Positions 4,303-56,835 of a stretch of DNA of 56,835 bases are shown here, in pieces (the stretch's first letter is position 1; each line of letters starts with the position of its first letter). The position numbers were made by a program, and so were the translations under genes. The notes beneath the pieces are model-generated. The model had not been told where the DNA came from, did not search any database, and saw nothing but the letters and a program-made list of their open reading frames with translations. The stretch is from Solilutibacter pythonis (GTDB lineage: Bacteria; Pseudomonadota; Gammaproteobacteria; Xanthomonadales; Xanthomonadaceae): assembly GCF_003697345.1 (NCBI RefSeq), contig NZ_RFLY01000018.1:1-56835 (forward strand), read 5' to 3'.

Positions 4303-4362
4303 GCCGCATGGCGGCTGGCCCGCTCCCGCGCGCGTGGGGTCAGCTGCCGTTTTGACGCATCG

Positions 4363-4385
4363 GCCGGAAGCCTTCCGCTTCCGGC
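4363..4385 (+). terminator. Hairpin downstream of the S9 peptidase gene
   Basis: GCCGGAAG (4363-4370) pairs with CTTCCGGC (4378-4385) across a 7-base loop, 60 bp after the peptidase stop. No T-run follows, so this is a weak terminator or an mRNA 3'-end stabiliser at best. Confidence 0.35.
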
Positions 4386-4451
4386 TGCATTGGGAATGCC
4401 CCGTCACTATTCCGGCCTGTCCGCCGCCGGCGATGCGAGGAAAAGACAGCG

Positions 4452-5717: not shown

Positions 5718-5724
5718 GCGCGCT

Positions 5725-5919
5725 TCAGCAGCAGCGCGAACGCCCTTTGCCGTAGCGCGCGTTCATCCGTTCGACGAAGAAATTCTCGCGGCTCATCGGC
5801 GTGCGCGCCGGATGGCGCCGGCGCATGTGGGCGAGGTAGGTCTCGTAGTCCGGCACGCCGACGGCCAGCCGCGCGGTACGCACCAGCCAGTCCCAGCCTT
5901 TACGCATCGAAGGCGACAT
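5725..5919 (-). CDS. YbdD/YjiX family small protein
   Basis: A 64-residue protein with the family pattern W..L...A....GVPDYE.Y..HM...HP...PMSRE.FF..R...RYG, ending in a cysteine pair. YbdD/YjiX proteins are almost always encoded directly downstream of cstA/btsT-type carriers, as here, where the two genes overlap by 20 bp (5900-5919). The role is unknown; an accessory function for the carrier is an inference from conserved neighbourhood. Length (64-67 residues) is normal for the family. Confidence 0.88.
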   Translation of the reverse strand: MSPSMRKGWDWLVRTARLAVGVPDYETYLAHMRRRHPARTPMSRENFFVERMNARYGKGRSRCC

Positions 5920-7972: not shown

Positions 7973-8088
7973 AATTCCTACCGGTCGATCGGGCGAGGGT
8001 GGGCGCTTATCGTTTCGCGGTCAAGCCGACTTCGGTCGAATGCCTGATTCGGGCGGCATTCGCGCGCATTCGCCGGGTAGATTCCGGG

Positions 8089-11115: not shown

Positions 11116-11148
11116 GCGGCGCTTGCGGGCTCGCGGTGGGAGGCGTGC

Positions 11149-11154
11149 AGTCTA
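11149..11154 (-). promoter_or_regulatory. Possible -10 element for the corC operon
   Basis: The minus strand reads TAGACT at 11154-11149, 33 bp before the corC ATG, inside the 74-bp gap after ybeY. No convincing -35 hexamer was found, so corC may also be read through from ybeY. Confidence 0.3.
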
Positions 11155-11189
11155 GCGTGTCGGTCGCGCTCTGCCGATGACAGGCCGCC

Positions 11190-11666
11190 TCAGCGGTAGG
11201 GATCGGCGATGCCCAGCCCGGCCAGGATCTCGCGCTCCAGTTGTTCCATCGCCAGCGCGTCGGCCTCGTCCTCGTGATCCCAGCCCAGGAGGTGCAGGCT
11301 GCCGTGCACGGTGAGGTGGGCGTAGTGCGCGGCCAGCGGTTTGCCTTGCTGGGCGGCCTCGCGCGCCACCACCGGCGCGCAGATCACCAGGTCGCCCAGC
11401 AGCGGGAAGCGCGCCTCTTCCGGCAGGCCGGGGGGGCGCTCGGCGGGGAAGCTCAGCACGTTGGTGGCGTAGTCCTTGCCGCGGTAATGGCGGTTGAGCG
11501 CCCGGCCTTCCTCGTCATCGACGATGCGCAGCGCCAGATCGGCTTCGCGGATGCGTCCTTCCAGCGCGGCGGCCACCCAGCGGCGGAAACTGCCTGAGGC
11601 CGGCACGCCCTTGCGCGTGGCGGCGTAGCTGACGCTGACTTCGAGCTGGATGGGGCCGTGGGTCAT
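11190..11666 (-). CDS. ybeY: Endoribonuclease / rRNA maturation factor YbeY
   Basis: The 158-residue protein carries the zinc-binding signature [12 protein letters not shown] near its C-terminus (three histidines as in HGxLHLxGYDH) and the upstream [19 protein letters not shown] segment typical of YbeY. It matures 16S rRNA 3' ends and takes part in ribosome quality control. It starts 9 bp after the phoH stop, in the conserved ybeZ-ybeY-corC order. The start at 11666 gives [14 protein letters not shown]; the length matches the family. Confidence 0.94.
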
Positions 11667-11675
11667 GCCGGCAGT

Positions 11676-12674
11676 CTAAGTCGAAGCCGGGCCGCTTTGC
11701 GCATCGCGGGCGTCGCGCGATTCGTAGGCGTTGACGATCCTGGCCACCAGCGGATGCCGCACCACGTCGCGCGATTCGAAGAAGGCGAAGCTGACGCCAT
11801 CGACCTCGCGCAGCACCTCGATGGCGTCCTTCAGGCCGGATTTGACGTGCTTGGGCAGATCGATCTGGGTCATGTCGCCAGTGATGACGGCGGTGGAGCC
11901 GAAGCCGAGCCGGGTCAGGAACATCTTCATTTGTTCGATGGTGGTGTTCTGCGCCTCGTCGAGGATGACGAAGGCATCGTTGAGCGTGCGGCCGCGCATG
12001 TAGGCCAGGGGGGCGATTTCGATGACGTTTTTCTCCAGCAGCTTGGCCACCTTTTCCACCCCCAGCATCTCGTAGAGCGCGTCGTAGAGCGGGCGTAGGT
12101 AGGGGTCGACCTTCTGGGTGAGATCGCCGGGCAGGAAGCCGAGCTTCTCGCCGGCCTCCACCGCCGGGCGCACCAGGATCAGGCGCTGTACCCGGGACTC
12201 GTTGAGTGCCTCCACCGCCATCGCCACGGCCAGGAAGGTCTTGCCGGTGCCGGCCGGGCCGATGCCGAAGTTGATGTCGTGGGTGGCGATGGCGTGCAGG
12301 TATTTCTTCTGGTTGCCGCCGCGGCCCTTGATGGTGCCGCGCTTGACCCGTACCGCCACCTCCTGCGGCGCGTAGTCGCCGCCGCGCGCGGGCGCGGGTT
12401 CGTCGCCATCGCCGATCATGCCGGCCAGCCGCAGGTTCAAGGCATGGCCGTCGAACACGGTCTCGCCGGCTTCGGCATGGAGCTCGCGCAGCACCTTCTC
12501 GGCCAACGCGAGCGCCTGCGCGTCCTCGCCCTTGACGCGGAAAATGTTGCCGCGGTTGCTGATCTCCACGCCCAATCGCAATTCGAGCTGGCGCAGATGG
12601 GCATCGAACGGGCCGGCCAGGTTGGCCAGCCGCTCGGTATCGGCGGGTTCGAGGGTGAAATCGTGGTGCGGCAT
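11676..12674 (-). CDS. ybeZ: PhoH family ATPase (YbeZ-type)
   Basis: The 332-residue protein has an N-terminal domain (about 1-115) and a P-loop ATPase domain with Walker A GPAGTGKT near residue 145 and a Walker B-like FVILDEAQN near residue 240. The RGRTLNDAFVILDEAQNTT and TRLGFGSTAVITGD motifs are diagnostic for PhoH/YbeZ. It is a predicted RNA-associated ATPase that works with YbeY, encoded next door. It heads the operon and is divergent from the amidohydrolase gene across 126 bp, which must hold both promoters. Confidence 0.93.
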   Translation of the reverse strand: MPHHDFTLEPADTERLANLAGPFDAHLRQLELRLGVEISNRGNIFRVKGEDAQALALAEKVLRELHAEAGETVFDGHALNLRLAGMIGDGDEPAPARGGDYAPQEVAVRVKRGTIKGRGGNQKKYLHAIATHDINFGIGPAGTGKTFLAVAMAVEALNESRVQRLILVRPAVEAGEKLGFLPGDLTQKVDPYLRPLYDALYEMLGVEKVAKLLEKNVIEIAPLAYMRGRTLNDAFVILDEAQNTTIEQMKMFLTRLGFGSTAVITGDMTQIDLPKHVKSGLKDAIEVLREVDGVSFAFFESRDVVRHPLVARIVNAYESRDARDAQSGPAST

Positions 12675-42474: not shown

Positions 42475-43683
42475 ATGAAAACGGAAACCCAACACGACAT
42501 CGTCATCGTGGGCGGCGGGCTGGTCGGCGCCAGCCTGGCTATCGCACTGGAGTCCGCGGGATTGGATGTGGCGATGGTGGAAGCCGCCTCGCCGGGCGCG
42601 TTGCCGCCGGTGTTCGACCAGCGCAACCTCAGTTTTGCCGAGACCACCTGCCAGGCGCTGGCCGCGCTCGGCGTCTGGCCGCTGTTGCGCGGCGCCTCGC
42701 CGATCCGGCGCATCCACGCCTCGCGCAACGGCGATTTCGGCCGGGTGCTGCTGGAGGCGCGGGAGATGGGCCGCGAGGCTTTCGGCTACGTCGTCATCGC
42801 CCGCGATTTCGGCGAGGCGCTGGACACACGGCTGGCCGAAGTGACCCACCTGAATCGCCGCCGCCCGGCGCGTTTTCTGGGCAGTACGATCCGCGCCGAC
42901 GGGCTGCGCGAGGTGCGCATCGCCGATGGCGAGTCGGAACGCGTGCTGGTCACGAAACTGCTGGTCGGCGCCGATGGCATGGACAGCAGCGTGCGTGCCG
43001 CGCTCGGCATCGGTGCCCAGCGCCACGATTACGGCCAGACACTGTTCGTCTGCCGCGTGCGCGCGTCGCGCGCGCCCGACGGTACCGCCTGGGAGCGGCT
43101 TGGCCCGCACGGCCCGACCGCGTTGCTGCCGCGGGCCGATCGCCATTACGGTGTGGTCCACGGCGTCGCCAGCGCGGATGCCGATGCCGTCGCCGCGCTC
43201 GACGAGCGTGCCTGGCTTGCGCGTTTGCAGGATGCCTTCGGCTGGCGCGCCGGCCGTTTCCTGGCCAGCGGCGAGCGCAGCCGCTATCCGGCGCTGCGGG
43301 TGGTGGCGGACAAACTCGTCGCGCCGCGCGCGGTACTGCTGGGCAATGCCGCGCAGAGCATCCACCCGGTCGGCGCGCAGGGCTTCAACCTGGGCCTGCG
43401 CGATGCACTGACCCTGGTCGAGGCCATCGACCGCCACGGGCTGGACGACCGAACCATGTTGGAACACTACGTCGCGCGCCGCCGCGAGGACCGCGAACGC
43501 ACCCTGGCCTTCTCCGATGGCATGGCGCGCGCCAGCGCCAACACGGGGGGAATGATGCGCCTGCTCCGCAGCGCCGGCATGGCCGTGTTGGCCAATGCGC
43601 CGGGCTTGCGCGCGCGACTGGCGGCGGGCGGGATGGGCTATCGCGGCGACGTGCCGGCGATCTGCCGGGAGGGTGCGCGATGA
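42475..43683 (+). CDS. ubiH: 2-octaprenyl-6-methoxyphenyl hydroxylase (UbiH)
   Basis: The 402-residue FAD monooxygenase has the N-terminal dinucleotide motif IVGGGLVGASLA, the second FAD motif VGADGMDSSVR near residue 165, and GNAAQSIHPVGAQGFNLGLRD near 285. The GNAAQ form (instead of GDAAH) is typical of UbiH rather than UbiI/UbiF. It hydroxylates the ubiquinone ring. The stop overlaps the next hydroxylase by 4 bp (ATGA). Confidence 0.9.
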   Translation: MKTETQHDIVIVGGGLVGASLAIALESAGLDVAMVEAASPGALPPVFDQRNLSFAETTCQALAALGVWPLLRGASPIRRIHASRNGDFGRVLLEAREMGREAFGYVVIARDFGEALDTRLAEVTHLNRRRPARFLGSTIRADGLREVRIADGESERVLVTKLLVGADGMDSSVRAALGIGAQRHDYGQTLFVCRVRASRAPDGTAWERLGPHGPTALLPRADRHYGVVHGVASADADAVAALDERAWLARLQDAFGWRAGRFLASGERSRYPALRVVADKLVAPRAVLLGNAAQSIHPVGAQGFNLGLRDALTLVEAIDRHGLDDRTMLEHYVARRREDRERTLAFSDGMARASANTGGMMRLLRSAGMAVLANAPGLRARLAAGGMGYRGDVPAICREGAR

Positions 43684-44861
43684 ACCGGCGCCTGCGGCGG
43701 GACGTGGTGGTGGCCGGCGGCGGCGTGGTTGGCGCGACTGCCGCGCTGGCGCTGGCAAAGGCCGGGCTGACGGTGGCGTTGGTCGAATCCGGCGCGCGGG
43801 CACGCTGGTCGCGCCAGGATCCCGACCCACGCGTGTTCGCCTTCGCCCCGGACAATGCCGCGCTGCTCGACGGGCTGGGCGTGTGGAACGAGATCGCGAC
43901 GGCGCGCGCGCAGCCGTATCGCCACATGCGGGTGTGGGATGCGGCCGGCGGCGGCGAGCTGCATTTCGATGCCGACGGGCTGGCACGGCGCGCGCTTGGC
44001 TGGATCGTCGAGAACGCCTTGTTGGTCGAATGCCTGTGGCGGGCGGCCGAACGCGCCGGCGTGGAGATCGTGCAACCGGCGCGGGTTGATGGCTTGACGC
44101 AGCGCGAAGACGGCGTGCGCCTGCGCCTGGAAGGCGGCGAGACGCTGGAGGCGCGCATCGCCATCGCCGCCGATGGCGCGCGCTCCAGGCTGCGCGAGTT
44201 GGCGGGCGTGGAAGTTTCCGCGCGCGACTACGCCCAGCGCGGCGTGGTCGCCTACGTCGAAACGGCCGAACCGCACCGGCTGACCGCCTGGCAGCGTTTC
44301 CTGCCCGGTGGCCCGCTGGCTTTCCTGCCGGCCGATGGCGACCGGCGCAGTTCGATCGTCTGGAGCCTGCCCGAGATGGAGGCCGAGCGCGTGCTGGTGC
44401 TGGACGATGCTGCTTTCGGCATCGAGCTCACCCAGGCGTTCGCCGCGCGCCTGGGCGTCGCGCGGCCATTGTCCAGGCGCGTGGCTTTCCCGCTGCGCCG
44501 GCAATTGGCGAAGACGCAACTGGCTGGGCGCGTGCTGTTAGTCGGCGATGCCGCGCATGTCGTGCACCCGTTGGCCGGGCAGGGCGTCAACCTCGGTCTG
44601 CGCGACGTCGCGGCCCTGGCGGCCTCGGTCGGGGAAGCGCGGGCCAGGGGCCGTGCCTTCGATGCCCCGCACCGCCTGCAAGCCTGGGCGCGGCGGCGGC
44701 GCAGCGACAACGTGGTTTCCGCTCACGCCTTCGAGACGATCAACCGGGTCTATTCCAACGATGCCTTGTTACCGACTTTCCTGCGCGGCCACGCGCTCGG
44801 CATCGCCAATGCCGTGGCGCCGCTGCGCCATGCGCTGTGGCGGCACGCCGCGGGAATATGA
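43680..44861 (+). CDS. UbiH/UbiI/VisC-family FAD-dependent hydroxylase
   Basis: The 393-residue flavoprotein has VAGGGVVGATAALALAK at the N-terminus, AADGARSRLRE near residue 160 and VGDAAHVVHPLAGQGVNLGLRDVAAL near 290, the last in the GDAAH form of UbiI/VisC. RVYSNDALLPTFLRG near the C-terminus is also usual for this group. It most likely performs the C5 ring hydroxylation (UbiI role), although UbiF-like activity is possible. It is coupled to ubiH by a 4-bp overlap, as in E. coli ubiH-visC. A 319-bp gap follows. Confidence 0.9.
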   Translation: MNRRLRRDVVVAGGGVVGATAALALAKAGLTVALVESGARARWSRQDPDPRVFAFAPDNAALLDGLGVWNEIATARAQPYRHMRVWDAAGGGELHFDADGLARRALGWIVENALLVECLWRAAERAGVEIVQPARVDGLTQREDGVRLRLEGGETLEARIAIAADGARSRLRELAGVEVSARDYAQRGVVAYVETAEPHRLTAWQRFLPGGPLAFLPADGDRRSSIVWSLPEMEAERVLVLDDAAFGIELTQAFAARLGVARPLSRRVAFPLRRQLAKTQLAGRVLLVGDAAHVVHPLAGQGVNLGLRDVAALAASVGEARARGRAFDAPHRLQAWARRRRSDNVVSAHAFETINRVYSNDALLPTFLRGHALGIANAVAPLRHALWRHAAGI

Positions 44862-45180: not shown

Positions 45181-45657
45181 ATGGCACGGTCCGGACAAGT
45201 GTGGCGAAATCTGTTCATCGCGGTGGCGCTGTCTTCCGGGTTGCTGGCGGGTTGCAAGCCCGCGGGCGACGCCCCACGGCGACAAAATGAAACCAAGCCC
45301 GAGGCTTTCTCGATTACCGAAATCCTGATTCAGCCCGCCACCTCGGCGGAAGGCGTGATGCGGCCCCAAACCGTCGATGCCCCCATCGTCGTGCTGATTC
45401 GCAACACCGGCAGCGCCGGCGAGCGCCAATTGCAAGCCAAGTTGATCGATATCGGCCAAGGCAAGCCGGTTGGGGCGCGGACGCTAACCTACACCGCGCG
45501 GACGCCTTCGGAAAATACGCTCACCTTCAAGCCGCGGCCGGCCTGGGGCGAAGGGCGGCATCTCCTTGAAGTGACGCTTGATGGAAAGCTCGTGGCGAGC
45601 CGCGATATCGATGTGTTTTCGGTAGCCGACGCGGAGTCGATGGGCGCCGCCCGCTGA
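45181..45657 (+). CDS. Small putative lipoprotein with an Ig-like/CARDB-like domain
   Basis: The 158-residue protein has a lipoprotein signal (MARSGQVWRNLFIAVALSSG then LLAGC, lipid Cys25). The mature part looks all-beta: ITEILIQPATSAEG, IVVLIRNTGSAGERQLQAKLID, NTLTFKPRPAWGEGRHLLEVTLDG. This is reminiscent of CARDB/Ig-like adhesion modules. No enzyme motif is present and no family is assigned. It is convergent with the di-haem peroxidase-like gene, with only 6 bp between stops. The start at 45181 is chosen from the signal peptide. Confidence 0.65.
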   Translation: MARSGQVWRNLFIAVALSSGLLAGCKPAGDAPRRQNETKPEAFSITEILIQPATSAEGVMRPQTVDAPIVVLIRNTGSAGERQLQAKLIDIGQGKPVGARTLTYTARTPSENTLTFKPRPAWGEGRHLLEVTLDGKLVASRDIDVFSVADAESMGAAR

Positions 45658-45663
45658 GCGCTT

Positions 45664-46701
45664 TCAAAGCGTTTGCAGGAATGCCAGGAGCTGCCGTTGC
45701 TCCTGCACGGTCAGGGCGATCGGCTTGCCGTCGGCCAGCCCGCGATAATACAGCTCGTGCTCGATCGCGGCCTGCAACGTATCCACGCTGCCATCGTGCA
45801 TGTAGGGGGCGGTCAGTCCGACGTGGCGCAAGGAGGGCGTCCTGAACGCGCCGATGTCGGCGGCCCTGCGGCTGACGATGAAATGCCCGAGCTCCGCGAC
45901 CTCGGTGTGGGTCATGACCGCGACGCCGGCGGGTTTTCCGGCGCGTTCGGTTTCGTCCAGCGTCTGGATGGCGGATTGCAGATTGCCGGCGATTTTCTGA
46001 AACCCGACCCCGGCATGGTGGAACCGGCCATCCTGTAGCGATCCACTCGCATCCAGGCGGTGGCAGTTGGCGCATTGCGCCTTGCCGGCGAACAGCTTCA
46101 TGCCCTCGGCCGCTCCATCGGGCAGGGCGGTGCCCTGGCGTCGCCATTGTTCGTAGCGGGTGGGGGCGGCGCTCAGCGAGCGCACATAGGCGGTCAATGC
46201 GGCCGTGACTTCTTTCGGGCCGGGCTCGTTCGTGCCGGAAGCGGCGGCCAGCCTGGCGTACAGATTCCTTTCCCTGATTTTCCCCAGCAGCGCCTCCTGA
46301 TCCCGCAAGCCCATCTCGACCGGGTTGGTGAAAGGTTGCAACACCACGTTTTCGAGTGCGCGCTCGCGCCCCTCCCAGAAAAACACGTCGCCCTGATCGG
46401 GCAGACCAAGCAGGCTGGGCGCGTTGCGCGCCCCCATTTTTCCCGCCACCCCAATGGATACCGGCCTGGGGTCGGAAAACGCGTGGGCGCGCTGGTGGCA
46501 GCTTGCGCAACTGACATTGCCATCGGCGCTCAAGCCCGGCTCCTCGAACAGCAGCCTGCCCACGGCGATCAGGTCGTCCGGTGAGTCGCCCTGGGCCTTT
46601 GTGCATCCGGCCACGCACGCCAGGATCGACATCATCGAAAGATAAGCCAGCAGGGTCGATATTCTGGTCGAGCCGAGACTTTTTTGTCTTGATATTGTCA
46701 T
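45664..46701 (-). CDS. Di-haem cytochrome c peroxidase/MauG-family lipoprotein
   Basis: The 345-residue protein has a signal sequence with a possible lipobox VAGC (Cys33). Two c-type haem motifs follow: CASCH (Cys65, Cys68, His69) and CANCH (Cys210, Cys213, His214). GARNAPSLLGL, FFWEGRERALENVVLQPFTNPVEMG, and the C-terminal AFRTPSLRHVGLTAPYMHDGSVDTLQAAIEHE (in parts) are family hallmarks. Relatives reduce hydrogen peroxide in the periplasm or oxidise protein side chains (MauG). It is divergent from the giant repeat protein across 99 bp, hinting at joint regulation. Oxidative cross-linking of its neighbour is pure speculation. Confidence 0.88.
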   Translation of the reverse strand: MTISRQKSLGSTRISTLLAYLSMMSILACVAGCTKAQGDSPDDLIAVGRLLFEEPGLSADGNVSCASCHQRAHAFSDPRPVSIGVAGKMGARNAPSLLGLPDQGDVFFWEGRERALENVVLQPFTNPVEMGLRDQEALLGKIRERNLYARLAAASGTNEPGPKEVTAALTAYVRSLSAAPTRYEQWRRQGTALPDGAAEGMKLFAGKAQCANCHRLDASGSLQDGRFHHAGVGFQKIAGNLQSAIQTLDETERAGKPAGVAVMTHTEVAELGHFIVSRRAADIGAFRTPSLRHVGLTAPYMHDGSVDTLQAAIEHELYYRGLADGKPIALTVQEQRQLLAFLQTL

Positions 46702-46800: not shown

Positions 46801-49800
46801 ATGTCAAGCAAGATGTGGGCGTTCGTGCGCCAGTTCGGTATCTGGACATCTATCGCAACACGTGGCCTGGGTGGCCGCTGGGGCATGCTGTTTCTGCTCC
46901 TTTTGCTCTCCGCCGCGACCTTCGGCGTTGTGGCGACGAATTATTTCTACGATGCGAATGGCCGGCTGGTCGTGGTGACGGACGATGCCGGCGCCAGCGC
47001 TCGTTACCGTTACGACGAAATGGGCAACCTGAAGAAAGTCGAGCGACTCTCGGCCGATGAGCTGGCCATCTTCGCTTTTACGCCCGGCAAGGGCGCGGCG
47101 GGCGTCAGAGTCACCCTCGATGGGCAAGGGTTCGCCACGGCAGCCACGGATAACGAAGTCCGTTTCAACGGCGTGCCGGCAACCGTTCAGAGCGCGAGCG
47201 CCACCCGTCTGGTGGCGACCGTTCCGGCCGGCGCCGCGACCGGCCCGATTACCGTCAAGGTGGGCGCCAGGATGGCGACGGGCGATGCCGATTTCGTGAT
47301 CGACCCCGGCGCCAGGCCGCCGGTGATCGGCTCGCTCTCGCCGCTGATCGCTTCGGCCGGCATGGATATCGATGCCGAGGGCAGCGGCTTCACCCCCGTG
47401 CCCGGGCAGACTTCCGTGCGTCTGAATCAAGTGCCCGTCCTTCCCACCCTGTTGCGGGACGAGCGGATCACGTTCGCGCTTCCCCCAATGGCGGCCAGCG
47501 GCAAGCTGATGGTGTCCACCCCCTACGGTGTCGCCATCAGCGACCAGGATTTGCTCGTGGCGCCCACCGGGGTGGAACCGGCCGCGATCGAATCGATGAA
47601 GCGCCTGGGTATCGATGCGGCGGCACAGACCCTGAGCGTGGCGGAAGCGGGTAAATCGCTGGCCGTGCTGTTCGATGGCGATGCCGGCGACAGGCTGTCC
47701 CTGCAATTTGGCGGTCTCGGCGATGTTTCGGTGGGTTATCGCCTGTTCGATATCGGCAATGCCGAGATCCTCTCGGGCACGGTGTCGGCTTCGAGCGCCA
47801 CGGCCTTCCTGCCCAGGCTGGCAACGCCAGGCACCTATCTTCTCTTGCTCAAGCCCAATGCCTACCCCGCCACCTGGTCGCTGGGGATCGAACGGGACAA
47901 GCTGCTTCCGGTCGATGGCGCTCCCCTGCCGCTGGCGGTCATGCCCGGCCAGACCAGGCGTGCTTGGTTTGCGGCGGAGGCGGGAGGCAAGCTCGGTATA
48001 GGCATTGTCGATGTGGTAACCAAAGGAAACAACAGCGGCTTCAACGTCAATGTTTATTCGCAGGATCGTGCCTCGATTGCTTCCGCCTCGTGCTCGGTAA
48101 GCAGGCTGAATTGCGATCTGGAGGTCACCACGCCTGCGAAGGGCGAGTATGTGGTTGAAATCAGATCGGGTAATTCCGCGCAATCCGTCGCTTTGAACGT
48201 ACTGCTGTCGAGTGAGGTGAGAAACACGCTGACGCGTGACGTGGCGATGCCGCTGGAGATCGTGCGGCGCGGCCAGAATGCCCGGCTGAGCTTTGCGGGC
48301 GAGGCGGGAGAGCGCCTGACCTTGCGGGTAATGGAGCAGATCACCACCCCTGGTTGGCAGACAGTCTATTACCATGTGCTGAAGCCCGATGGCACCATAT
48401 TGACCTCGACCTCGCTGACTTCACCGGGCACGCTTGAAATCCCGATTTTGCCGGTAAGCGGTATTTACCGTGTGTTTGTGGGCCCGACCTATGCGGCCAC
48501 GCTCAAGGCACAACTCATGCTGGCAACCGGCAATGTCCAAACGTTGGTGCTGGATGGCGCGGCCAGTCCGGTATCGACGGCAGTGCCGAGCCAGCGCGCC
48601 TTCCTCAATTTCACGCTGGCGGCGCCGGGTAATGTGGGGGTCGGCATCACCGATCTGGCCTTGCTGGGGGGCTCGGGCAACTATGTCAGCATAGTCGCCT
48701 ACAACGAAGCCGGTCAGCAACAAGCAAGTTCGAACTGCTATGTCAGCGAGGTGGGTTGCAAGCTGAATTTGAGGAATTTTCCCGCTGGAAATCACCGGAT
48801 CGAGGTGTCTCCATCCGGTAGCGCGCAACGGATGAGCTTCAATGCGCTGTTGTCGAGCGAGGTTACAGGTACCTTGGTACGGGATGTGGCGATGCCGCTG
48901 GGAATCACACGGCGTGGCCAGAATGCCCGCCTGAGCTTTACTGGAACGGCGGGCGAGCGCCTGACCTTGCAAGTAATGGAGCAGACCACGTTGCCAGCCT
49001 GGCAGACGGTCTACTACACCGTGCTGAATCCCGATGGCACCACCCTGACCTCGATGTCGCCGAATACGGTCGGCACGCTCGAACTGCCGCCCTTGCCGGT
49101 GGCCGGGACTTACAGCGTGTTCGTGAGCCCGGCTTATGCCGCCACGCTCAAGGCGCAATTCATGTTGGCGAGTGGTTATGTCCAGACGTTGGCGCTGGAT
49201 GGCGCGGCCACTCGGGTATTGACGCCGTTGCCGGGCCAGCGCGCGCTCCTCAACTTCACGTTGGCGGCGCCGGGTAATGTGGGGATTGCCATTACCGATC
49301 TGGCCTTGCTGGGTGGTTTGAACAGCTATGTCAGCATAGCTGTCTACAACGAAGCCGGCTATCAACAAACAAGCCTGACTTGCTATGTCAGTGCAGTGGG
49401 CTGCAAGCTGAATATAGATGGTGTGCCTGGTAACTACCGTGTCGCGGTGTCTCCGGCCGATAGCGTGCAACGGATGAGTTTCAATGCACTGTTGTCGAGC
49501 GAGGTTACAGGTACCTTGGTACGGGATGTGGCGATGCCGCTGGAGATCGCGCGGCGCGGCCAGAATGCCCGCCTGAGTTTTGCCGGCACGGAAGGCGACC
49601 GTTTGGCCTTGCAGGTAATCGCACAGACCACCCTGCCGGCTTGGCAGACGACCTATTACAAAGTGCTGAAGCCCGACGGTACCACGCTGACTTCAATGTC
49701 GTTGAAGTCGCCAGGCACGCTGGAATTGCCGCGCTTGCCTGTGAGTGGCGCCTACAGCATATTCGTGGAATCGGATTATGCGGCCACGCTCAAGGCGCAG

Positions 49801-51759
49801 CTCATGCTGGTAACGGGTAATGTCCACACGCTGGTGTTGGATGGCGCGGCCAGCCCGGTATCAACGGTTGTGCCAAACCAACGGGTCTTCCTCAATTTCA
49901 CGCTGGCGGCGCCAGGTAGTGTGGGCGTCGGCATCACCGATCTGGCCTTGCTGGGGGGGACGGGTAGCTATGTCAACATAGTCGCCTATGACGAAGCCGG
50001 TCAGCAACGAAGAAGTTCGAGCTGCTATGTCAGCAATGTGGGCTGCAAGCTGAACTTGAGAGGCTTGCCCGCCGGTAACTACCGGGTTGAAGTATCTCCA
50101 TCCGACAGCGCGCAACGGATGAGCTTCAATGCGCTGTTGTCGAGCGAAATCACGGGTGCCTTGAAACGCGATGTGGCGATACCGCTGGAAATTATGAGGC
50201 GTGGTCAAAACATCAATCTGAGTTTTGCGGGCGTGGCGGGCGAGCGCCTGACGCTTCGGGTAATGGAGCAGGCGACCTTGCCGATTTGGCAGGAAGTCTA
50301 TTACTACGTGTTGAGGCCCGATGGCGCCACCCTGACCTCGATGTCGCCGAATTCTGTGGGCACGCTCGAACTGCCGCCCCTGCCGGTGAGCGGGAATTAC
50401 AGTGTGTTCGTGAGTCCGGCTTACGCGGCCACGCTCAAGGCGCAACTCATGCTGGCGAGCGGTAGTGTCCATACGTTGGCGCTCGATGGCGCGACCACCC
50501 GGGTATCGACGCCGTTGCCAAATCAACGTGTCTTCCTCAATTTCACCCTGGCGGCGCCGGGCAATGTGGGCGTCGGCATCACCGATCTGGCCTTGCTGGG
50601 GGGGGCAGGTAGCTATGTCAACATAGTTGCCTACAACGAAGCCGGTCAGCAACGAGGAAGTTCCAGTTGCCGTATCAGTGAGGTGGGCTGCAAGCTGAAC
50701 TTGAGAGGCTTGCCCGCCGGTAACTACCGGGTTGAAGTATCTCCATCCGACAGCGCGCAACGGATGAGCTTCAATGCGCTGTTGTCGAGCGAGATCACGG
50801 GTACCTTGACACGCGATGTGGCGATGCCGCTGGAAATCGCACGGCGTGGTCAGAACGCCAATCTGAGTTTTGCCGGTACAGAGGGTGAGCGCTTGACGCT
50901 TCGGGTAATGGAACAAATCACCCTGCCAGCCTGGCAGCAAGTCTATTACTACGTGTTGAATCCCGATGGCACCACCTTGACTTCGATCTCGTTCGATTCT
51001 TCAAGGACGCTCAATTTGCCACCCTTGCCGGCAAGCGGGACTTACAGCATATTCGTGGGTCCGCGCTATGCGGCCACGCTCAAAGCGCAACTCATGCTGG
51101 CGAGGGGTAATGTCCACACGCTGGTGCTCGATGGCGCGGCCACCCGGGTATCGACGCCGTTGCCGGGCCAGCGCGCCTTCCTCAACTTCACGCTGGCGGC
51201 GCCGGGTAACGTGGGAATCGGTATTGCCGATCTGGCCTTGCTGGGCGGGGTGGGGAGCTACGTCAACATAAACGTATATGACAAGGATGGTCGGAGTCGG
51301 GCGAGTGCGAATTGTTATGTCAATCAGGGGTGCGGGCTGAGCCTGAAGGGGCTTGCCGCGGGCAATTACCGGGTTGAGGCATATTCGCCCGATGGTGCGC
51401 AACGGATGAGTTTCGATGCGCTGCTGTCGAGTGAGGTGACAGGCGCATTGACGCGCGATGTGGCGATGCCGTTGACAATCGCGCGGCGCGGCCAGAATGC
51501 CCGCTTGAGCTTTACCGGCGCGGCGGGCGAGCGCTTCGAGTTGCGGGTAATGGCGCAAACCACGTCGCCGGCCTGGCGGACGGTCTATTACACGGTGTTT
51601 CGGCCGGATGGCACCACCTTGGCCTCGATCTCGTTGGATTCTCAAGGAAAACTCAATTTGCCAGCTCTGCCGGTGGCGGGGACTTACAGCGTATTCGTGG
51701 GCCCGGCCTATGCCGCCACGATCACGTCGCAACTCATGCTGGCGAGCACCACGCCATGA
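46801..51759 (+). CDS. Giant exported repeat protein: YD-repeat stub, two TIG-like domains, tandem PPC-like modules
   Basis: From ATG 46801 (GGGGAA upstream) the product is 1652 residues. Residues 28-45 are a hydrophobic signal/anchor after a basic N-region. Residues 47-80 hold two YD repeats (NYFYDANGRL, RYRYDEMGNL). About 90-167 and 172-257 are two IPT/TIG-like Ig domains (IFAFTPGKGAAGVRVTLDGQGF; VIGSLSPLIASAGMDIDAEGSGF). After a linker and a divergent first module come five tandem 214/215-residue modules and a half module. Each module has two beta-rich halves resembling pre-peptidase C-terminal (PPC) domains: GERLTLRVMEQ...VLNPDGTTL...LPVSGTYSVFV and FLNFTLAAPGNVGVGITDLALLGG...GNYRVEVSP. 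Each second half carries one Cys-x5/6-Cys pair. No catalytic motif was seen. A surface or secreted structural/adhesive role is inference. The next gene, encoding an RHS protein, begins within or just after its 3' end. Confidence 0.8.
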   Translation: MSSKMWAFVRQFGIWTSIATRGLGGRWGMLFLLLLLSAATFGVVATNYFYDANGRLVVVTDDAGASARYRYDEMGNLKKVERLSADELAIFAFTPGKGAAGVRVTLDGQGFATAATDNEVRFNGVPATVQSASATRLVATVPAGAATGPITVKVGARMATGDADFVIDPGARPPVIGSLSPLIASAGMDIDAEGSGFTPVPGQTSVRLNQVPVLPTLLRDERITFALPPMAASGKLMVSTPYGVAISDQDLLVAPTGVEPAAIESMKRLGIDAAAQTLSVAEAGKSLAVLFDGDAGDRLSLQFGGLGDVSVGYRLFDIGNAEILSGTVSASSATAFLPRLATPGTYLLLLKPNAYPATWSLGIERDKLLPVDGAPLPLAVMPGQTRRAWFAAEAGGKLGIGIVDVVTKGNNSGFNVNVYSQDRASIASASCSVSRLNCDLEVTTPAKGEYVVEIRSGNSAQSVALNVLLSSEVRNTLTRDVAMPLEIVRRGQNARLSFAGEAGERLTLRVMEQITTPGWQTVYYHVLKPDGTILTSTSLTSPGTLEIPILPVSGIYRVFVGPTYAATLKAQLMLATGNVQTLVLDGAASPVSTAVPSQRAFLNFTLAAPGNVGVGITDLALLGGSGNYVSIVAYNEAGQQQASSNCYVSEVGCKLNLRNFPAGNHRIEVSPSGSAQRMSFNALLSSEVTGTLVRDVAMPLGITRRGQNARLSFTGTAGERLTLQVMEQTTLPAWQTVYYTVLNPDGTTLTSMSPNTVGTLELPPLPVAGTYSVFVSPAYAATLKAQFMLASGYVQTLALDGAATRVLTPLPGQRALLNFTLAAPGNVGIAITDLALLGGLNSYVSIAVYNEAGYQQTSLTCYVSAVGCKLNIDGVPGNYRVAVSPADSVQRMSFNALLSSEVTGTLVRDVAMPLEIARRGQNARLSFAGTEGDRLALQVIAQTTLPAWQTTYYKVLKPDGTTLTSMSLKSPGTLELPRLPVSGAYSIFVESDYAATLKAQLMLVTGNVHTLVLDGAASPVSTVVPNQRVFLNFTLAAPGSVGVGITDLALLGGTGSYVNIVAYDEAGQQRRSSSCYVSNVGCKLNLRGLPAGNYRVEVSPSDSAQRMSFNALLSSEITGALKRDVAIPLEIMRRGQNINLSFAGVAGERLTLRVMEQATLPIWQEVYYYVLRPDGATLTSMSPNSVGTLELPPLPVSGNYSVFVSPAYAATLKAQLMLASGSVHTLALDGATTRVSTPLPNQRVFLNFTLAAPGNVGVGITDLALLGGAGSYVNIVAYNEAGQQRGSSSCRISEVGCKLNLRGLPAGNYRVEVSPSDSAQRMSFNALLSSEITGTLTRDVAMPLEIARRGQNANLSFAGTEGERLTLRVMEQITLPAWQQVYYYVLNPDGTTLTSISFDSSRTLNLPPLPASGTYSIFVGPRYAATLKAQLMLARGNVHTLVLDGAATRVSTPLPGQRAFLNFTLAAPGNVGIGIADLALLGGVGSYVNINVYDKDGRSRASANCYVNQGCGLSLKGLAAGNYRVEAYSPDGAQRMSFDALLSSEVTGALTRDVAMPLTIARRGQNARLSFTGAAGERFELRVMAQTTSPAWRTVYYTVFRPDGTTLASISLDSQGKLNLPALPVAGTYSVFVGPAYAATITSQLMLASTTP
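48202..51759 (+). repeat. Tandem ~643-bp coding repeats (five full units plus a half unit)
   Basis: Anchored on the codons for LLSSE, units begin at 48202, 48847, 49489, 50134, 50779 and 51421, giving periods of 645, 642, 645, 645 and 642 bp. Long stretches are near-identical at the DNA level, for example around 50041-50160 versus 50689-50805. A more divergent unit precedes 48202. The indels are whole codons, so the frame is preserved. Confidence 0.92.
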
Positions 51760-51812
51760 AGACGCTGAAGACTCGGTTTGAACGGCCGCGGCTCATGCCT
51801 ACGGGAAATGCC

Positions 51813-54800
51813 ATGAACAATCAGAATGGGGTTCAAACCATGCAAGCCCACGCCACCTGGCACCGACGCCTCGCATCCGTATTGAGCCTGGGGGGGCTGC
51901 TGTTCGTGGCGGGCATGACCGGCGCGGCGCAGATCTCGGGCTCCGGCGTGGAGCCGGGCACGGCGCAAGCGAATGCGGACAGCACGGTGGGCCATGCCGA
52001 CATACGGGTTTCATCCGGCCGCATGCTGCGGCTGTTGCCGGATGGCCGGACATTGCAGTGGCTGGATACCGCGCGCCCGGCACGGCCACTGAGGCGCTGG
52101 GAGCTGCCGGAGACCCGGCGCGAAGCAACACTGACGCGGCTGGCCAGCGGCGAAGTATTGCTATTCGGCGGGATGGACGAACGAGGCGTGGCGCAGCCGG
52201 ATGGCTATCGCTTCGTGCCGGCCACGCAATCGCTGAGGCCCTTCCGCGAACCGCGGTTGATGGCCCGCGCCGGCCATACGGCGACCGTGCTGACCGATGG
52301 CTCGGTGCTGTTCGCGGGCGGGCGTTCCGGCACCCCAGCCCAGCGCTGGCGCGGTGGCGATCATGTGGTGCCGGTGGCTGGACTCGCTCACTACCACCGC
52401 ACGGCGGAGTTGCAGGCCGATGGCCGCGTGCTTCTCCTTGGCGGCGGGCAGGGCAAGGCCCGCGACGCGCAGGTCTTCGACCCCGCGACGGATCGCCTCT
52501 CGCCGCTTGCTGCCCAGGCTCGCCCTTCCACCGGCATGGGCGACGCGCCTCGCGTGGCGGCCACCTTGCCCGCCCGGCAGGCCAGCGACGTGGCGGTGGA
52601 GACGCGCCTGGCCGTGCGTTTCAGTCAACGCATGCGCGAAGCGTCGCTCGTCGCCGGCACGGTCAGCCTGATCGGCCCGGTGGGGCAAGTGGCGGTCGAT
52701 GTCGTCCCGGCGGAGCGGGGCCGGCTGCTGTTCGTCAAACCCCGCCAGCCCCTGTTACCGGCCACCGCCTACAGCTTGTTGGTGGATGGCGCGAAAGGCG
52801 TGAACGGCAAGACGTTGCCATTGCTGGTTCTGGATTTCTGGACCGAAACGTTGCATGCGCGCGATACCGCAAAGGCGACATCGCCCCCGGCCCGTCCGGC
52901 ATCGCGCTACCCGGCGGGGTTTTTGGGCTGCGGCAAGACCCGGCCCTATCCCTGCCGTCCGCGCAGCCGCCTGCAACAGGGCTTTTGGACGCCCGGTCGG
53001 GACAATACCGCCGCGCACTGGCGGACTTCGGGGAATCTGGAAAGCGTCCCGGACATGCAGCCGCTCGCGGCGGTGGCCGCCCGCCACCGCACCACGGTGG
53101 TGACGGGCCGCATCCGCTCGGTGGATGGGCGGGCCGTGGCCGGGGTGGAGGTGAGCCTCGGCCAGCGCGTGGCAAAGACCAATGCGCACGGCGATTTCGT
53201 GCTCACCGGCGTGCCGACGGGCAGGCAGGAGCTGTATGTCGATGGCAGCGCAGCCAAGCGCGGCGATACCGAATACGGGCAGTTCGTGATGGGGGTGGAT
53301 GTGGCGGCGGCGGGGCGGCTCACACAAGTGCCGCACGTGATGTACCTGCCGAGAATCCACCCGCGCGACAAGGTGGCGATCAGCTCGCCGCTCCTGCGCG
53401 ACACGGTGCTGACGCACCCGGATATGCCGGGCCTGCAAGTGCTGATCCCGAAGGGCACGGTAATCCGCGACCGCAAGGGCCGCATCGTGCGCGAGCTGGC
53501 GCTGGTGCCGACCCCGGTGAACCGGGCGCCGTTCCCGGTATCCGACAATTACCCGATGTACTTCACCATCGAGCCGGGCGGCGCGGTGGTGCAGGGGCTG
53601 GACCCGGCATCGGCCAAGGGCATCCGCGTGCTCTATCCCAACTACGATGCCCATCCGGCGGGCACCCGGGCCAACTTCTGGATTTACGACCCGCAGGAAG
53701 GCTGGCGCATGTACGGCCAGGGCCGGGTGACGAGCGACGGCAGCCGCTTCGCGCCGGAGGCCGGCGTGGGCCTGCACCAGGTAATGGGCGGGGGCTACTC
53801 CCTCAACACCGACGACCCCGGGCCGGAAGAAGGCATGCCACCGGATTGCCAGGTATGCGGCAACGGCAACGTGGGCACGGGCGGCAATGCCACCTCGGGC
53901 GACCCGGTGGACCTGCGCACCGGCCAGTTCACCTATAGCGAGACCGATCTGGTGATCGCCGATACGCTGCCGATCCAGATCGGCCGCACCTACCGGCCGC
54001 ACGACAACGTCAAGCGGTCATTCGGCTACGGCACCGCGTTCAACTACGACTACCGCCTCAACATCGAGGGGGCCGGGAACAGCGCGATGCGGCTGGTCCT
54101 GCCCAACGGCGTACCGCTCGACTTCCAGCGCGTCTCGGGCAGCGGCGCCAGCGGGGAATGGCGGCACACCGGCAACGGGCAGTACCACCAGGCGCGCCTG
54201 TACTACCGCAATACCCGCTATCACCTGAAGTTGGTGGATGGCACGGCGATGCAGTTCAACAACTACGCGCCGAACCGCCTGGAGTCGATCAGCAACCGAT
54301 ACGGCCAGACGTTGCGCTTCACCTGGGATGCCGGGCGGCTGGCGCGCATCACCAGCCCTAATGGCCGTTACGTGAACCTGGAATACGACGACCAGGACCG
54401 CATCCAGACCGTGCGCGACCCGCTGGGCAACGCCACTCAATACCGCTATGGCAGCCACGGCCTGCTGGAGCGGGTGATCTACCCGAACGACACCTCGCGG
54501 CGCTACGAATACACCCTTCAGCCGTTCCCGGCGGGCTGGACGGGCGGCTATCGCATGGATGCGTACTCGACCCGCCACTTCCACCGCGTGAGCGCGATCT
54601 ACGACCAGCGCGGGCAACGGCTGCTGTACAACGAATACTCGCGCCGACGGTTGGCTGCCACCGGCGACCAGCCGGCCCAGGACCTGGGCCCGGATCAGGT
54701 GATCAAACAGATCCTGGCCGATGGCGCGACCTATACCTTCGATTACGCCCACCTCGACCAGGGCGTCCCCGGCGTGCTGGTGACGATGCCCGACGGCGTG

Positions 54801-56835
54801 CGCCGCCGCGTGGTGTTCGATGGGGACGGGCTGTACCCGCAAAGCGACGTATGGGGCTATGGCACGGCCGACGCGCAAACCTACCGCTTCGAACGCGACG
54901 GCCAAGGCCGGCTGACCGCGCGTATCGACAGCCTGGGCCGGCGCACGGAATACCGCTACGACGGCGCGGGCCAGCTCATCGCTATTGAAGCGCTGGCCGG
55001 TAGCCCGCAATCGCGCACGACCGGCTTCAGCTACGACAGCGCGCAGCGGCTGACCGCCCTGCGTACGCCGCTGGGCCAGACGCTGCGCTTCGCCTACGAC
55101 GCGACGGGCTGCCTGATCGCCAGCACCGACGCACTGGGCCAGACCACCCGCTTCGGCTGCGACGGGGCGGGCCAGCTCACGCATGTGACCACCCCACTGG
55201 GCCAGACCACCCGGGTGGATTACGTCGCCGGGCAAGTCGCGCGGATCACCGACCCGCTGGGCCGCGTCGCCACACTGCGCTACGACGCGCTGGGCCGGCG
55301 CATCGCCGTGCAATCGCCGGATGGCAGCGTGCAACGGGTGGAATACGACACCCTGGGCCGGGTGGTGAAGTCCTACGACGGCCGCGGCCAAGCGACGGAA
55401 TACGGCTACGACGCCAACGGCAACCTCAGCGCCGTCCTGAAACCCCACGGCCTGGGCGAGACCTACGACTACGACGCCCGCGACCGGCTGATCCAACGCA
55501 CCGACAACCTGGGCCAAAGCGAACGCTGGGTCTACGACCTGGAAGGCCGACCGACCCGTTACACCGACCGCCAGGGCCAAGTCACGACCTACGCCTACGA
55601 CGCCCTGGGCCGCCTGTCGACGGTGACCCACCCCGATGGCGGCACGTCCGTCTCGGCCTACGATGGCGGCGACCGCCTGCTGTCGCTGAGCGACAGCCAA
55701 GCGGGCACGCTCCAGTGGACCTACAGCCCCTTCGACGAACGACTGAGCGAGACCAGCGCGGGGGGCGTGGTGCAGTGGCGCTACGACGCCGGCGGTCGCC
55801 GGATAAGCATGCAGGCGGGCACGCAACCGGCGGTCAACTACGAATGGGATGCCGGCAACCGCCTGCGCCGCATCACACAAGGCAGCGAACACGTACGCTT
55901 CGGCTACGATGCCGACAACCGCCTGATCGAACAGATCCTGCCCAATGCCGTGAAGCAAGCCTACGTGTACAACGCGGCGGACCAGCTGACCGGCATCGGC
56001 TGGGCGGATAAGGACGATCAAGTGATCGGCAGCCTGGGCTACGGCTACCACCCACAAAGCGGCCGGCTCTCGGCGCAGACCGGCAGCTACGCCCCGCAAC
56101 TGCTGCCGCCGGCCAGCCAGGGCGACAACACGTTCGACGCCAACCACCGTCAGACCCGCTTCGAGGGCACCGCGCTGCACTACGACGCCAACGGCAACCT
56201 CACCGAGGCAGGCGGCCGCCGCTACGTGTGGAACGCCCGCAACCAACTCGTCGAAGTACGCGAAGGCGCACAGCTAGTAGCGAGCTACCGCTACGACGCC
56301 CTGGGCCGGCGCATTGTGAAACAAGAGAACGGCGGCACTATCGAATACCTGTACGACGGTCTGAACCCGATACAGGAGAAAGCGGGCGAGACGATCAACC
56401 CGATTCTGACCGGGTTGGGGATCGACGAATACTACGCAAGAAACGAAGCCATCGGCCGCACCTACTTCCTGAGCGACCACCAGAACAGCACGCGGGCGTT
56501 GACCAACGCCGCGGGCCAAGTGGTGAACCGCTACGACTACGACCCGTACGGCAACGCGCGTCAGAGCAAAACAGGCTTCAGCAACCCGTACCAATACACG
56601 GGCCGTGAACGCGACCAGACGGGCCTGATGTACTACCGCGCCCGCTACTACCGCCCTGACATGGGGCGATTCATTGCGGAAGACCCGATCGGGCTGGCGG
56701 GGGGATTGAATACGTATGCCTATGTCGGTGGCAACCCAATTAGTTGGATTGATCCGTATGGACTCCAAGTCATGGTGTGTCGTGACCCTGCTTTTAATGG
56801 CAAGGTTCCTGCACACCACTATTGGGTCACCACGG
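51813..56835 (+). CDS. Sec-exported RHS repeat protein (3' end beyond the window)
   Basis: The frame is open without a stop from 51756 to the window edge. ATG 51813 (GGGAAA upstream) or 51840 give a signal peptide (HRRLASVLSLGGLLFVAGMTGAAQ); ATG 51756 overlaps the previous stop and is the longest option. Order: Kelch-like repeats (VLLFGGMD, VLFAGGRS, VLLLGGGQG; about 52100-52480), an Ig-like Big_5/SbsA-type domain (about 52550-52840), a carboxypeptidase-regulatory-like domain (VTGRIRSVDGRAVAGVEV; about 53095-53300), and a DUF6531-like entry (GDPVDLRTGQFTY; about 53908). A YD-repeat shell of many units follows (54300-56300), then the RHS core (YYRARYYRPDMGRFIAEDPIGLAGG...NPISWIDPYGL) ending at 56765. 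Then 23 residues of variable tip are visible (QVMVCRDPAFNGK...HHYWVTT). The shell would encapsulate the tip toxin. The presence of a Sec signal and absence of PAAR or VgrG features argue against type VI delivery. Confidence 0.88.
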   Translation, partial: MNNQNGVQTMQAHATWHRRLASVLSLGGLLFVAGMTGAAQISGSGVEPGTAQANADSTVGHADIRVSSGRMLRLLPDGRTLQWLDTARPARPLRRWELPETRREATLTRLASGEVLLFGGMDERGVAQPDGYRFVPATQSLRPFREPRLMARAGHTATVLTDGSVLFAGGRSGTPAQRWRGGDHVVPVAGLAHYHRTAELQADGRVLLLGGGQGKARDAQVFDPATDRLSPLAAQARPSTGMGDAPRVAATLPARQASDVAVETRLAVRFSQRMREASLVAGTVSLIGPVGQVAVDVVPAERGRLLFVKPRQPLLPATAYSLLVDGAKGVNGKTLPLLVLDFWTETLHARDTAKATSPPARPASRYPAGFLGCGKTRPYPCRPRSRLQQGFWTPGRDNTAAHWRTSGNLESVPDMQPLAAVAARHRTTVVTGRIRSVDGRAVAGVEVSLGQRVAKTNAHGDFVLTGVPTGRQELYVDGSAAKRGDTEYGQFVMGVDVAAAGRLTQVPHVMYLPRIHPRDKVAISSPLLRDTVLTHPDMPGLQVLIPKGTVIRDRKGRIVRELALVPTPVNRAPFPVSDNYPMYFTIEPGGAVVQGLDPASAKGIRVLYPNYDAHPAGTRANFWIYDPQEGWRMYGQGRVTSDGSRFAPEAGVGLHQVMGGGYSLNTDDPGPEEGMPPDCQVCGNGNVGTGGNATSGDPVDLRTGQFTYSETDLVIADTLPIQIGRTYRPHDNVKRSFGYGTAFNYDYRLNIEGAGNSAMRLVLPNGVPLDFQRVSGSGASGEWRHTGNGQYHQARLYYRNTRYHLKLVDGTAMQFNNYAPNRLESISNRYGQTLRFTWDAGRLARITSPNGRYVNLEYDDQDRIQTVRDPLGNATQYRYGSHGLLERVIYPNDTSRRYEYTLQPFPAGWTGGYRMDAYSTRHFHRVSAIYDQRGQRLLYNEYSRRRLAATGDQPAQDLGPDQVIKQILADGATYTFDYAHLDQGVPGVLVTMPDGVRRRVVFDGDGLYPQSDVWGYGTADAQTYRFERDGQGRLTARIDSLGRRTEYRYDGAGQLIAIEALAGSPQSRTTGFSYDSAQRLTALRTPLGQTLRFAYDATGCLIASTDALGQTTRFGCDGAGQLTHVTTPLGQTTRVDYVAGQVARITDPLGRVATLRYDALGRRIAVQSPDGSVQRVEYDTLGRVVKSYDGRGQATEYGYDANGNLSAVLKPHGLGETYDYDARDRLIQRTDNLGQSERWVYDLEGRPTRYTDRQGQVTTYAYDALGRLSTVTHPDGGTSVSAYDGGDRLLSLSDSQAGTLQWTYSPFDERLSETSAGGVVQWRYDAGGRRISMQAGTQPAVNYEWDAGNRLRRITQGSEHVRFGYDADNRLIEQILPNAVKQAYVYNAADQLTGIGWADKDDQVIGSLGYGYHPQSGRLSAQTGSYAPQLLPPASQGDNTFDANHRQTRFEGTALHYDANGNLTEAGGRRYVWNARNQLVEVREGAQLVASYRYDALGRRIVKQENGGTIEYLYDGLNPIQEKAGETINPILTGLGIDEYYARNEAIGRTYFLSDHQNSTRALTNAAGQVVNRYDYDPYGNARQSKTGFSNPYQYTGRERDQTGLMYYRARYYRPDMGRFIAEDPIGLAGGLNTYAYVGGNPISWIDPYGLQVMVCRDPAFNGKVPAHHYWVTT

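What the first reader, a model, noticed from the sequence alone, without database searches (positions are those of the whole stretch)
46801..56835. Two consecutive giant Sec-exported genes: a YD/TIG/PPC-module protein followed by an RHS toxin-like protein
The upstream gene encodes an exported protein of about 1650 residues that itself opens with a YD-repeat stub. The next gene, directly adjacent or overlapping, encodes an RHS shell with its own signal peptide and a Kelch-Ig-carboxypeptidase-regulatory front end. Known RHS systems use type VI (PAAR/VgrG), wall association or Tc-toxin B/C splits. This pair has none of the type VI features. The upstream protein may be a surface scaffold, adhesin or release partner for the RHS shell. 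That functional link is inference from adjacency, shared YD sequence and co-directionality.
Basis: partly seen in the sequence, partly recalled or inferred. Interest (0 to 1): 0.85.

Follow-up and report, generated by a model that had tools for sequence, protein, structure and literature searches.

The report
RHS toxin, fibre, haem-enzyme gene module
Two giant exported proteins, one of them a probable toxin that bacteria use against each other, sit in a conserved gene module with a haem enzyme related to ones that chemically modify other proteins, which hints that the weapon is finished by oxidation outside the cell.

Summary
P1 (46801-51759) carries a mature N-terminal YD stub, TIG domains and ~215-aa PPC-like repeats. 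P2 (51756 to the contig end) is an RHS shell behind Kelch, Ig and TTR domains. They overlap by ATGA. The link is no longer only inference: among 247 family genomes P1 occurs in 16, and P2 follows it at 15 of 15 readable loci. Its close homologues occur in exactly the same 16 genomes; the next hits score about half as high. MAU-P1-P2 also occurs in Rhodanobacter, Dyella and Duganella; in a Streptomyces, P1-like and RHS parts are one frame. P2 tips are variable (Tae4-like, Tlde1-like, deaminase), without PAAR. Best reading: a Sec-exported two-protein RHS toxin module with its own di-haem oxidase, probably a maturation enzyme. The module is well supported; MAU's substrate and outer-membrane crossing are inferred. 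Against exclusivity: more distant MAU relatives occur without P1 outside the family, and the 12 examined lack the EIYYR motif and group apart. New variant of a known kind.

The parts
45181..45657 (+). LIP: small lipoprotein-like protein (frame open from 44950; start at 45181 chosen by comparison), ends 6 nt before the end of MAU, tail to tail
45664..46701 (-). MAU: MauG/MbnH-type di-haem enzyme, two CxxCH, FWEGR, ELYYR, lipobox-like VAGC
46801..51759 (+). P1: exported YD-TIG-PPC repeat protein (in-frame ATG also at 46738)
46933..47052 (+). YD stub, the probable N-terminus of mature P1, four predicted strands
47077..47268 (+). IPT/TIG domain 1 (a second Ig-like domain follows)
48235..51756 (+). 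five full and one half copy of a ~215-aa PPC-like repeat, C-x6-C pairs in the B half (C-x5-C in one copy)
51756..56835 (+). P2: Sec-exported RHS protein, truncated by the contig end
52101..52331 (+). P2 Kelch-like segment
52542..52811 (+). P2 Big_5 Ig-like domain
53088..53357 (+). [not shown]
53361..53807 (+). [not shown]
53877..56765 (+). P2 RHS/YD shell, from DUF6531 to the Rhs-associated core (56538-56765)
56766..56835 (+). start of the variable C-terminal tip; the rest probably lies on contig C23

Best explanation
LIP, MAU, P1 and P2 form one conserved module for contact or surface delivery of a polymorphic RHS toxin in Lysobacterales. Shown by comparison: P2 is an RHS shell with a signal-peptide-like leader and an exchangeable tip; P1 is its constant neighbour, a repeat protein whose mature end is probably a free YD hairpin pair; MAU is a c-type di-haem enzyme of the MauG/MbnH branch, often with a lipobox, with close homologues in exactly the family genomes that have P1. 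Inferred: P1 is a stalk that docks on the P2 shell, perhaps by adding its YD strands to the shell; MAU, with H2O2, oxidises residues of P2 or P1 outside the cytoplasm and so matures, cross-links or arms the complex; a tip released from the shell acts on a neighbouring bacterium while a downstream immunity gene protects kin. My probabilities: one functional module 0.93; P2 an antibacterial polymorphic toxin 0.85; P1 physically binds P2 0.55; MAU modifies P1 or P2 0.4.
For: Order P1-P2 on one strand at 15 of 15 readable loci from 247 family genomes. MAU homologues at 223.9 bits or more in exactly the 16 P1 genomes, of 7 genera, next best 121.5 bits; 1/C(247,16)=1.8e-25 if genomes were independent, which they are not. 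P2 front end in 15 of these 16 plus the chimeric G168. MAU-P1-P2 in Rhodanobacter, Dyella and Duganella, MAU-P1 in Fulvimonas at a contig end. Fusion in Streptomyces. 21 P1-linked MAUs are one side of a branch with support 100/99 against 12 relatives; 21 of 21 carry E[ILV]YYR against 0 of 12. A Tyr at that place agrees with the MauG-type Tyr-His haem (passages of PMC6405878). Tips vary: of 17 printed only L056 and L061 are plainly alike by eye. Of 10 scanned, 5 match Tlde1, Tae4, Pput_2613 deaminase, PPPDE or ART families, three of these below the family cut-off. Small open frames follow many of the tips.
Against: No experiment and no complex prediction. At class level 23 of 368 other genomes have MAU relatives at 147-214 bits, and only one of them (G576) has a P1 hit at E<=1e-15, so the wider enzyme group has other work. 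LIP was not found by BLAST in the flanks of the Rhodanobacter, Fulvimonas, Dyella and Duganella loci; in Rhodanobacter and Dyella a different lipoprotein-like gene precedes MAU. No MAU was found in the flanks of the Streptomyces fusion or upstream in a Deltaproteobacteria contig with P1-P2. In the N-terminal 416 residues of P1 no aromatic residue is kept in all MAU-linked loci and lost elsewhere, and the P1 Cys pairs are missing in Dyella and Duganella. Five of 10 scanned tips match no family.
Confidence: 0.55

Rival explanations
1. MAU is an ordinary peroxidase that removes H2O2 near the envelope; it travels with the toxin genes because the toxin is deployed under oxidative stress, and it does not touch P1 or P2.
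For: MAU belongs to Pfam CCP_MauG. Of 12 neighbourhoods of its relatives outside the module, 8 show a phosphoesterase-like gene beside it and 4 a LysR-type regulator, by eye.
Against: Co-occurrence with P1 in 16 of 16 genomes, kept even when MAU is placed downstream (G213, G183, G104). The Tyr ligand position argues for the MauG branch rather than Met-ligated peroxidases.
Confidence: 0.25
2. P1 and P2 form a bacterial teneurin-like adhesion or signalling complex rather than a killing device.
For: P2 has a TTR-like domain and a YD shell like teneurins and bacterial teneurin-like proteins; P1 is built of adhesin-like Ig and PPC modules.
Against: Tips are variable, and some match known antibacterial toxin families. 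No NHL family was listed by Pfam, and the shell aligns best with type VI Rhs shells.
Confidence: 0.15
3. The genes are neighbours by shared descent of one mobile island and have no functional link.
For: Patchy distribution, 16 of 247 genomes in 7 genera, and integrase-like and primase-like frames on the contig that overlaps the window's end.
Against: MAU identities to the window of 36-50% with the set kept; MAU kept with the pair when its place changes; P1-RHS fusion in Streptomyces and the same set in Duganella.
Confidence: 0.05

Closest known systems
Type VI Rhs effectors (RhsA, RhsP, Tse5, Tse15, S. bongori Rhs)
   Different: Signal-peptide-like leader, Kelch-Ig-TTR front end, no PAAR or VgrG match, no TssC found in the draft genome, constant P1 and MAU neighbours
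Bacterial teneurin-like proteins (TLP; PMC13018210)
   Same: Exported, Ig and TTR domains before a YD shell, variable C-terminal toxin, downstream immunity gene (paper: abstract and sections 6, 7 and 10 read; passages of section 9)
   Different: TLPs were found there by FN-plug, NHL and YD-shell models; no NHL was listed for P2 by Pfam. The paper's main text has 0 occurrences of 'peroxidase', 'Lysobacter' and 'Xanthomon'
Tc toxin BC components
   Different: No SpvB or TcdB family listed by Pfam or NCBIfam at E<=1; P1 is not a TcB by these matches
MbnH and MauG di-haem enzymes
   Same: MbnH is the nearest: 6e1c, named there only 'Di-heme enzyme' and recalled as MbnH, is the best solved relative; two haem motifs, FW[DE]GR Trp, Tyr at the ligand place
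   Different: 157 bits against a 363-bit cut-off for MbnH and 132 against 444 for MauG; the constant neighbour is an RHS module
ZU5-bearing RHS toxins of Zhang et al. 2012 (PMC3482391)
   Same: A possible ZU5-like domain N-terminal to RHS (passages read)
   Different: Those ZU5 autopeptidases carry a CxH motif (passages); the P2 domain holds no cysteine

Membership tests
RHS polymorphic toxins | YD/RHS shell with Rhs-associated core | tested here: met
   PF05593 254 bits, TIGR03696 92 bits over cut-off 32.5
RHS polymorphic toxins | Variable C-terminal tip after a conserved core | tested here: met
   Conservation falls from 0.64 (residues 1621-1680) to 0.17 (the last 13) across 19 proteins; of 17 tips printed only L056 and L061 are plainly alike by eye
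RHS polymorphic toxins | Immunity gene downstream | tested here: inconclusive
   Small open frames follow many of the tips; on C23 a lipoprotein-like frame follows the tip; neutralisation not testable
Type VI Rhs effector | PAAR/VgrG domain or partner and a T6SS | tested here: not met
   No such Pfam match in P1 or P2 at E<=1; PF05943 not found in the own draft genome, control rings in E. coli, 1 of 14 controls
Teneurin-like protein | FN-plug, NHL and YD-shell | tested here: inconclusive
   YD-shell met; NHL not listed by Pfam; shell aligns to teneurins with a chain range about 400 residues longer
Tc toxin TcB/TcC | SpvB/TcdB domains | tested here: not met
   None among Pfam or NCBIfam matches at E<=1
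CCP_MauG superfamily | PF03150 and two CxxCH | tested here: met
   133 bits over 25.6; two CxxCH in 21 of 21
MbnH | TIGR04039 cut-off | tested here: not met
   157.3 bits against 362.85
MauG | TIGR03791 equivalog cut-off | tested here: not met
   132.2 bits against 443.85
MauG-type haem ligation | Tyr-His six-coordinate haem | tested here: inconclusive
   Tyr pair invariant in 21 of 21 and the local alignment to MauG ends at about that place; residue-level match to MauG not printed; no structure or spectrum

The most novel reading that the evidence does not exclude
A dedicated group of MauG-type di-haem enzymes is the maturation enzyme of a secreted RHS toxin: it oxidises the P1/P2 complex after export, and P1 docks on the RHS shell by donating its free N-terminal YD strands. 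I know of no other toxin delivery module armed by haem-driven protein oxidation (recalled; searches).
Probability: 0.3. Interest if true: 0.87.

Novelty: new variant of a known kind. Interest (0 to 1): 0.66.

Why it matters
How RHS-shell toxins without an obvious delivery machine reach and enter target cells is open; the authors of the 2026 TLP paper say so for teneurin-like proteins (PMC13018210, section 10). This module gives a small set of constant partner genes that can be deleted one by one. It also gives a MauG-branch enzyme with two candidate substrates beside it, so its chemistry can be tested directly.

Tried and rejected
Considered and rejected: chance adjacency of P1 and P2; a type VI effector; a Tc B/C pair; membership in MbnH or MauG proper. 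LIP as the substrate of MAU, by analogy with MbnP (recalled), was dropped as the main idea because Rhodanobacter and Dyella have another lipoprotein-like gene there. W316 and the Cys pairs of P1 as MAU targets were dropped because they are not kept in Dyella and Duganella. In P2, C400, H554 and C701 are kept in 18 of 19 MAU-linked proteins and absent or gapped in 3 of 3 relatives without MAU nearby; so are H174, W198 and Y339, where the three may not be homologous. This is a weak lead only.

Limits: the LIP profile A3 was built from many of the same loci it then found, so its bit gap is partly circular; the P1, P2 and MAU family searches used only the window's proteins. The genome search scores only some candidates per genome: the P1-linked MAU of G576 (seen) is not listed, so counts are lower bounds. 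The family sample is 247 genomes drawn from a larger group. Five weak P1 hits near the YD stub (G056, G114, G139, G150, G212) and the Kelch-PPC chimera G168 were left out of the 16. The MAU tree used 12 of the 23 other genomes. The P2 model has pTM 0.51 and residues 250-280 under pLDDT 50.

Full report
The observation. The window is the whole contig C9 of a 2.93-Mb draft genome; the window's GC is about 0.66. By shared contig lengths, members of its family sample are Lysobacteraceae/Xanthomonadaceae (compare; for example 41599 bases, X. albilineans, and 23229 bases, X. bromi). The genus was not determined. P1 has a leader, a YD stub, TIG domains and five and a half copies of a 214-215-aa repeat. 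P2 has Kelch, Big_5, a CarboxypepD_reg match below cut-off, DUF6531, an RHS shell and the Rhs-associated core. P1 gives one match in this genome, and none of the 16 other genomes of the genus that were searched has it.

Relatives and order. A search of 247 family genomes with P1 gave 22 with a match at E<=0.001. In 16 of them, including this genome, the N-terminal part is well matched; five others match weakly around the YD stub, and G168 matches only repeats next to a Kelch piece. These 16 genomes hold 17 P1 loci, because G183 has two in tandem. Two loci (G104, G094) end at a contig edge inside P1. At the other 15 of 15, an RHS homologue of P2 follows on the same strand. Not all are whole: in G221 and G215 P2 lies in more than one frame, in G180 P1 lies in two frames, in G232 both are in pieces with N between, in G065 P2 runs off the contig, and in G201 the start and the tail of P1 are on two contigs, the tail followed by P2. 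The P2 front end, searched alone, is found in 15 of the 16 (not G094, a fragmentary genome) and in G168, and in no other of the 247 at E<=1e-20.

The missed members. Directly upstream and on the other strand lies MAU, a CCP_MauG protein whose best solved relative is 6e1c (recalled as MbnH, which agrees with the NCBIfam ranking). Searched with the window's MAU alone, 20 of 247 genomes have a match at E<=1e-30; 16 score 223.9 bits or more and are exactly the 16 P1 genomes, and the other four score at most 121.5. A second match in the own genome scores 120. MAU lies upstream on the opposite strand at 12 loci, and downstream of P2 on the opposite strand in G213, G183 and G104; in G094 it is on another contig. 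A small lipoprotein-like gene, LIP, lies upstream and ends tail to tail with MAU in the window. It is found at 15 loci of 14 of the 16 genomes at 144-181 bits, while 204 of the 247 genomes have some match, the others at up to 94.5 bits, a related widespread protein. G183 reads LIP-P1-P2-LIP-P1-P2-MAU.

Beyond the family. A scan of named genome contigs with the P1 N-terminal alignment gave 43 loci, some of them the same genomes as above. MAU at 200 bits or more lies in the fetched flanks of 16 of the 43, including Rhodanobacter (L087), Fulvimonas (L088, contig end), Dyella (L089) and Duganella (L096). L090, L091 and L093 end inside P1 and show no MAU. In a Streptomyces (L094) the P1-like part and the RHS part are one 2702-aa frame, without MAU in the flanks. 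A Deltaproteobacteria contig (L092) has P1-P2 without MAU in the 2.7 kb available upstream. The other loci have shorter or weaker P1 matches, many of them around the YD stub, some beside or inside RHS frames.

Results against exclusivity. In 369 genomes of the class, P1 at E<=1e-15 was found in 8, and only G000 and G576 at full strength. MAU relatives at 147-214 bits occur in 23 of the 368 other genomes. Twelve of these neighbourhoods were read: 8 show a phosphoesterase-like gene beside the enzyme, 4 a LysR-type regulator and several a small CxxCH protein, all by eye; two sit among glycolysis-like genes; none has a P1 or P2 match. In a tree of 21 P1-linked and these 12 enzymes the two sets are the two sides of one branch with support 100/99; 21 of 21 against 0 of 12 have E[ILV]YYR. 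So the P1-linked enzymes are a group of their own within a wider family with other work. The root is not known, and L088 has a long branch.

Anatomy of P1. In 17 of 18 frames printed, the leader runs within a few residues into Y-x-Y-D-x-x-G-[RK]-L or a close variant. The model of residues 65-480 has mean pLDDT 88.5, with four strands for the stub. A mature protein that begins with two YD hairpins invites strand addition to the RHS shell; this is inference. The repeats carry Cys pairs in 19 of 21 proteins counted, none in Dyella and Duganella. By eye the C-terminus shows no anchor.

Tips. Of 17 tips printed only L056 and L061 are plainly alike by eye. Ten were scanned: five match a toxin or peptidase family at E<=0.01 (Tlde1, PPPDE, Pput_2613 deaminase, Tox-ART-HYD1, Tae4) and five match none; only the deaminase and Tae4 pass Pfam's cut-off. 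The own genome has other pieces of nearly the same core in other frames: C26 (92%), C13 (91%) and C14 (93%), as expected for tip exchange. The last 127 bases of C9 equal the end of C23. C23 continues as a frame of 147 aa, 42 of them shared, and then a lipoprotein-like frame, an HTH-like frame on the other strand, a large primase-like frame and a tyrosine-recombinase-like frame (these names are mine, by eye). The tip holds N-D-C-x-x-F-A, which by eye resembles N-C-x-x-F-A in the PPPDE-like tip of L058. A lipoprotein next to the tip would fit an envelope target; this is inference.

Mechanism. MauG and BthA have a Tyr-His haem where canonical bacterial peroxidases have Met-His, and MauG modifies tryptophans of preMADH (PMC6405878, passages). 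The invariant Tyr pair of the P1-linked enzymes falls where the local alignments to MauG and MbnH end, so I place MAU with the modifying branch; this is not proof. With P1 and P2 as its constant neighbours, modification of one of them is the simplest use. P2 is the slightly better candidate: C400, H554 and C701 are kept with MAU and missing without it, in a sample of only three.

Comparison with print. Bacterial teneurin-like proteins (PMC13018210; abstract, sections 6, 7 and 10 read, passages of section 9) are shells with toxins and immunity genes; the authors state that no delivery machinery is obvious, and the main text has 0 occurrences of 'peroxidase'. Searches of the open library for MauG with YD repeat (0 papers), MauG with RHS (5, unrelated by title and abstract start) and RHS with cytochrome c peroxidase, toxin and Xanthomonas (0) found no description. 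Most subscription papers, and preprints, are not covered.

Verdict. The finding is real and larger than reported: a conserved RHS toxin module with a dedicated di-haem enzyme. The module is well supported; its chemistry is a testable proposal.

Noticed in passing
G000 contigs C26 (3225-4115), C13 (52526-52864), C14 (46757-47089): Further pieces of nearly the same RHS core (91-93% identical) in other open frames: probably a store of exchangeable tips in the own genome.
   Followed up: partly
L017 (contig C23) 812-5485: Beyond the tip and the lipoprotein-like frame lie an HTH-like frame, a 1025-aa primase-like frame and a tyrosine-recombinase-like frame, which suggests an integrative element at this spot (by eye).
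   Followed up: no
L096 6538-7143: In Duganella a gene that by eye looks like a PAAR protein lies upstream of MAU-P1-P2, so there the module may sit near type VI genes.
   Followed up: no
L094 9512-17617: Streptomyces: P1-like YD-TIG-PPC part and RHS shell in one 2702-aa frame.
   Followed up: partly
L150-L153, L155, L157, L158, L161: A second MauG-like family in the class beside a phosphoesterase-like gene and, at several loci, a small CxxCH protein.
   Followed up: partly
L087 9030-9551, L089 9203-9727: In Rhodanobacter and Dyella a different lipoprotein-like gene precedes MAU in place of LIP.
   Followed up: partly
[not shown]
   Followed up: no
window 42475-44861: Two adjacent FAD_binding_3 genes (monooxygenase-like) upstream of the module.
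   Followed up: no
G000 contig C33, about 4280-12427: A separate 4311-aa open frame with many RHS matches.
   Followed up: no
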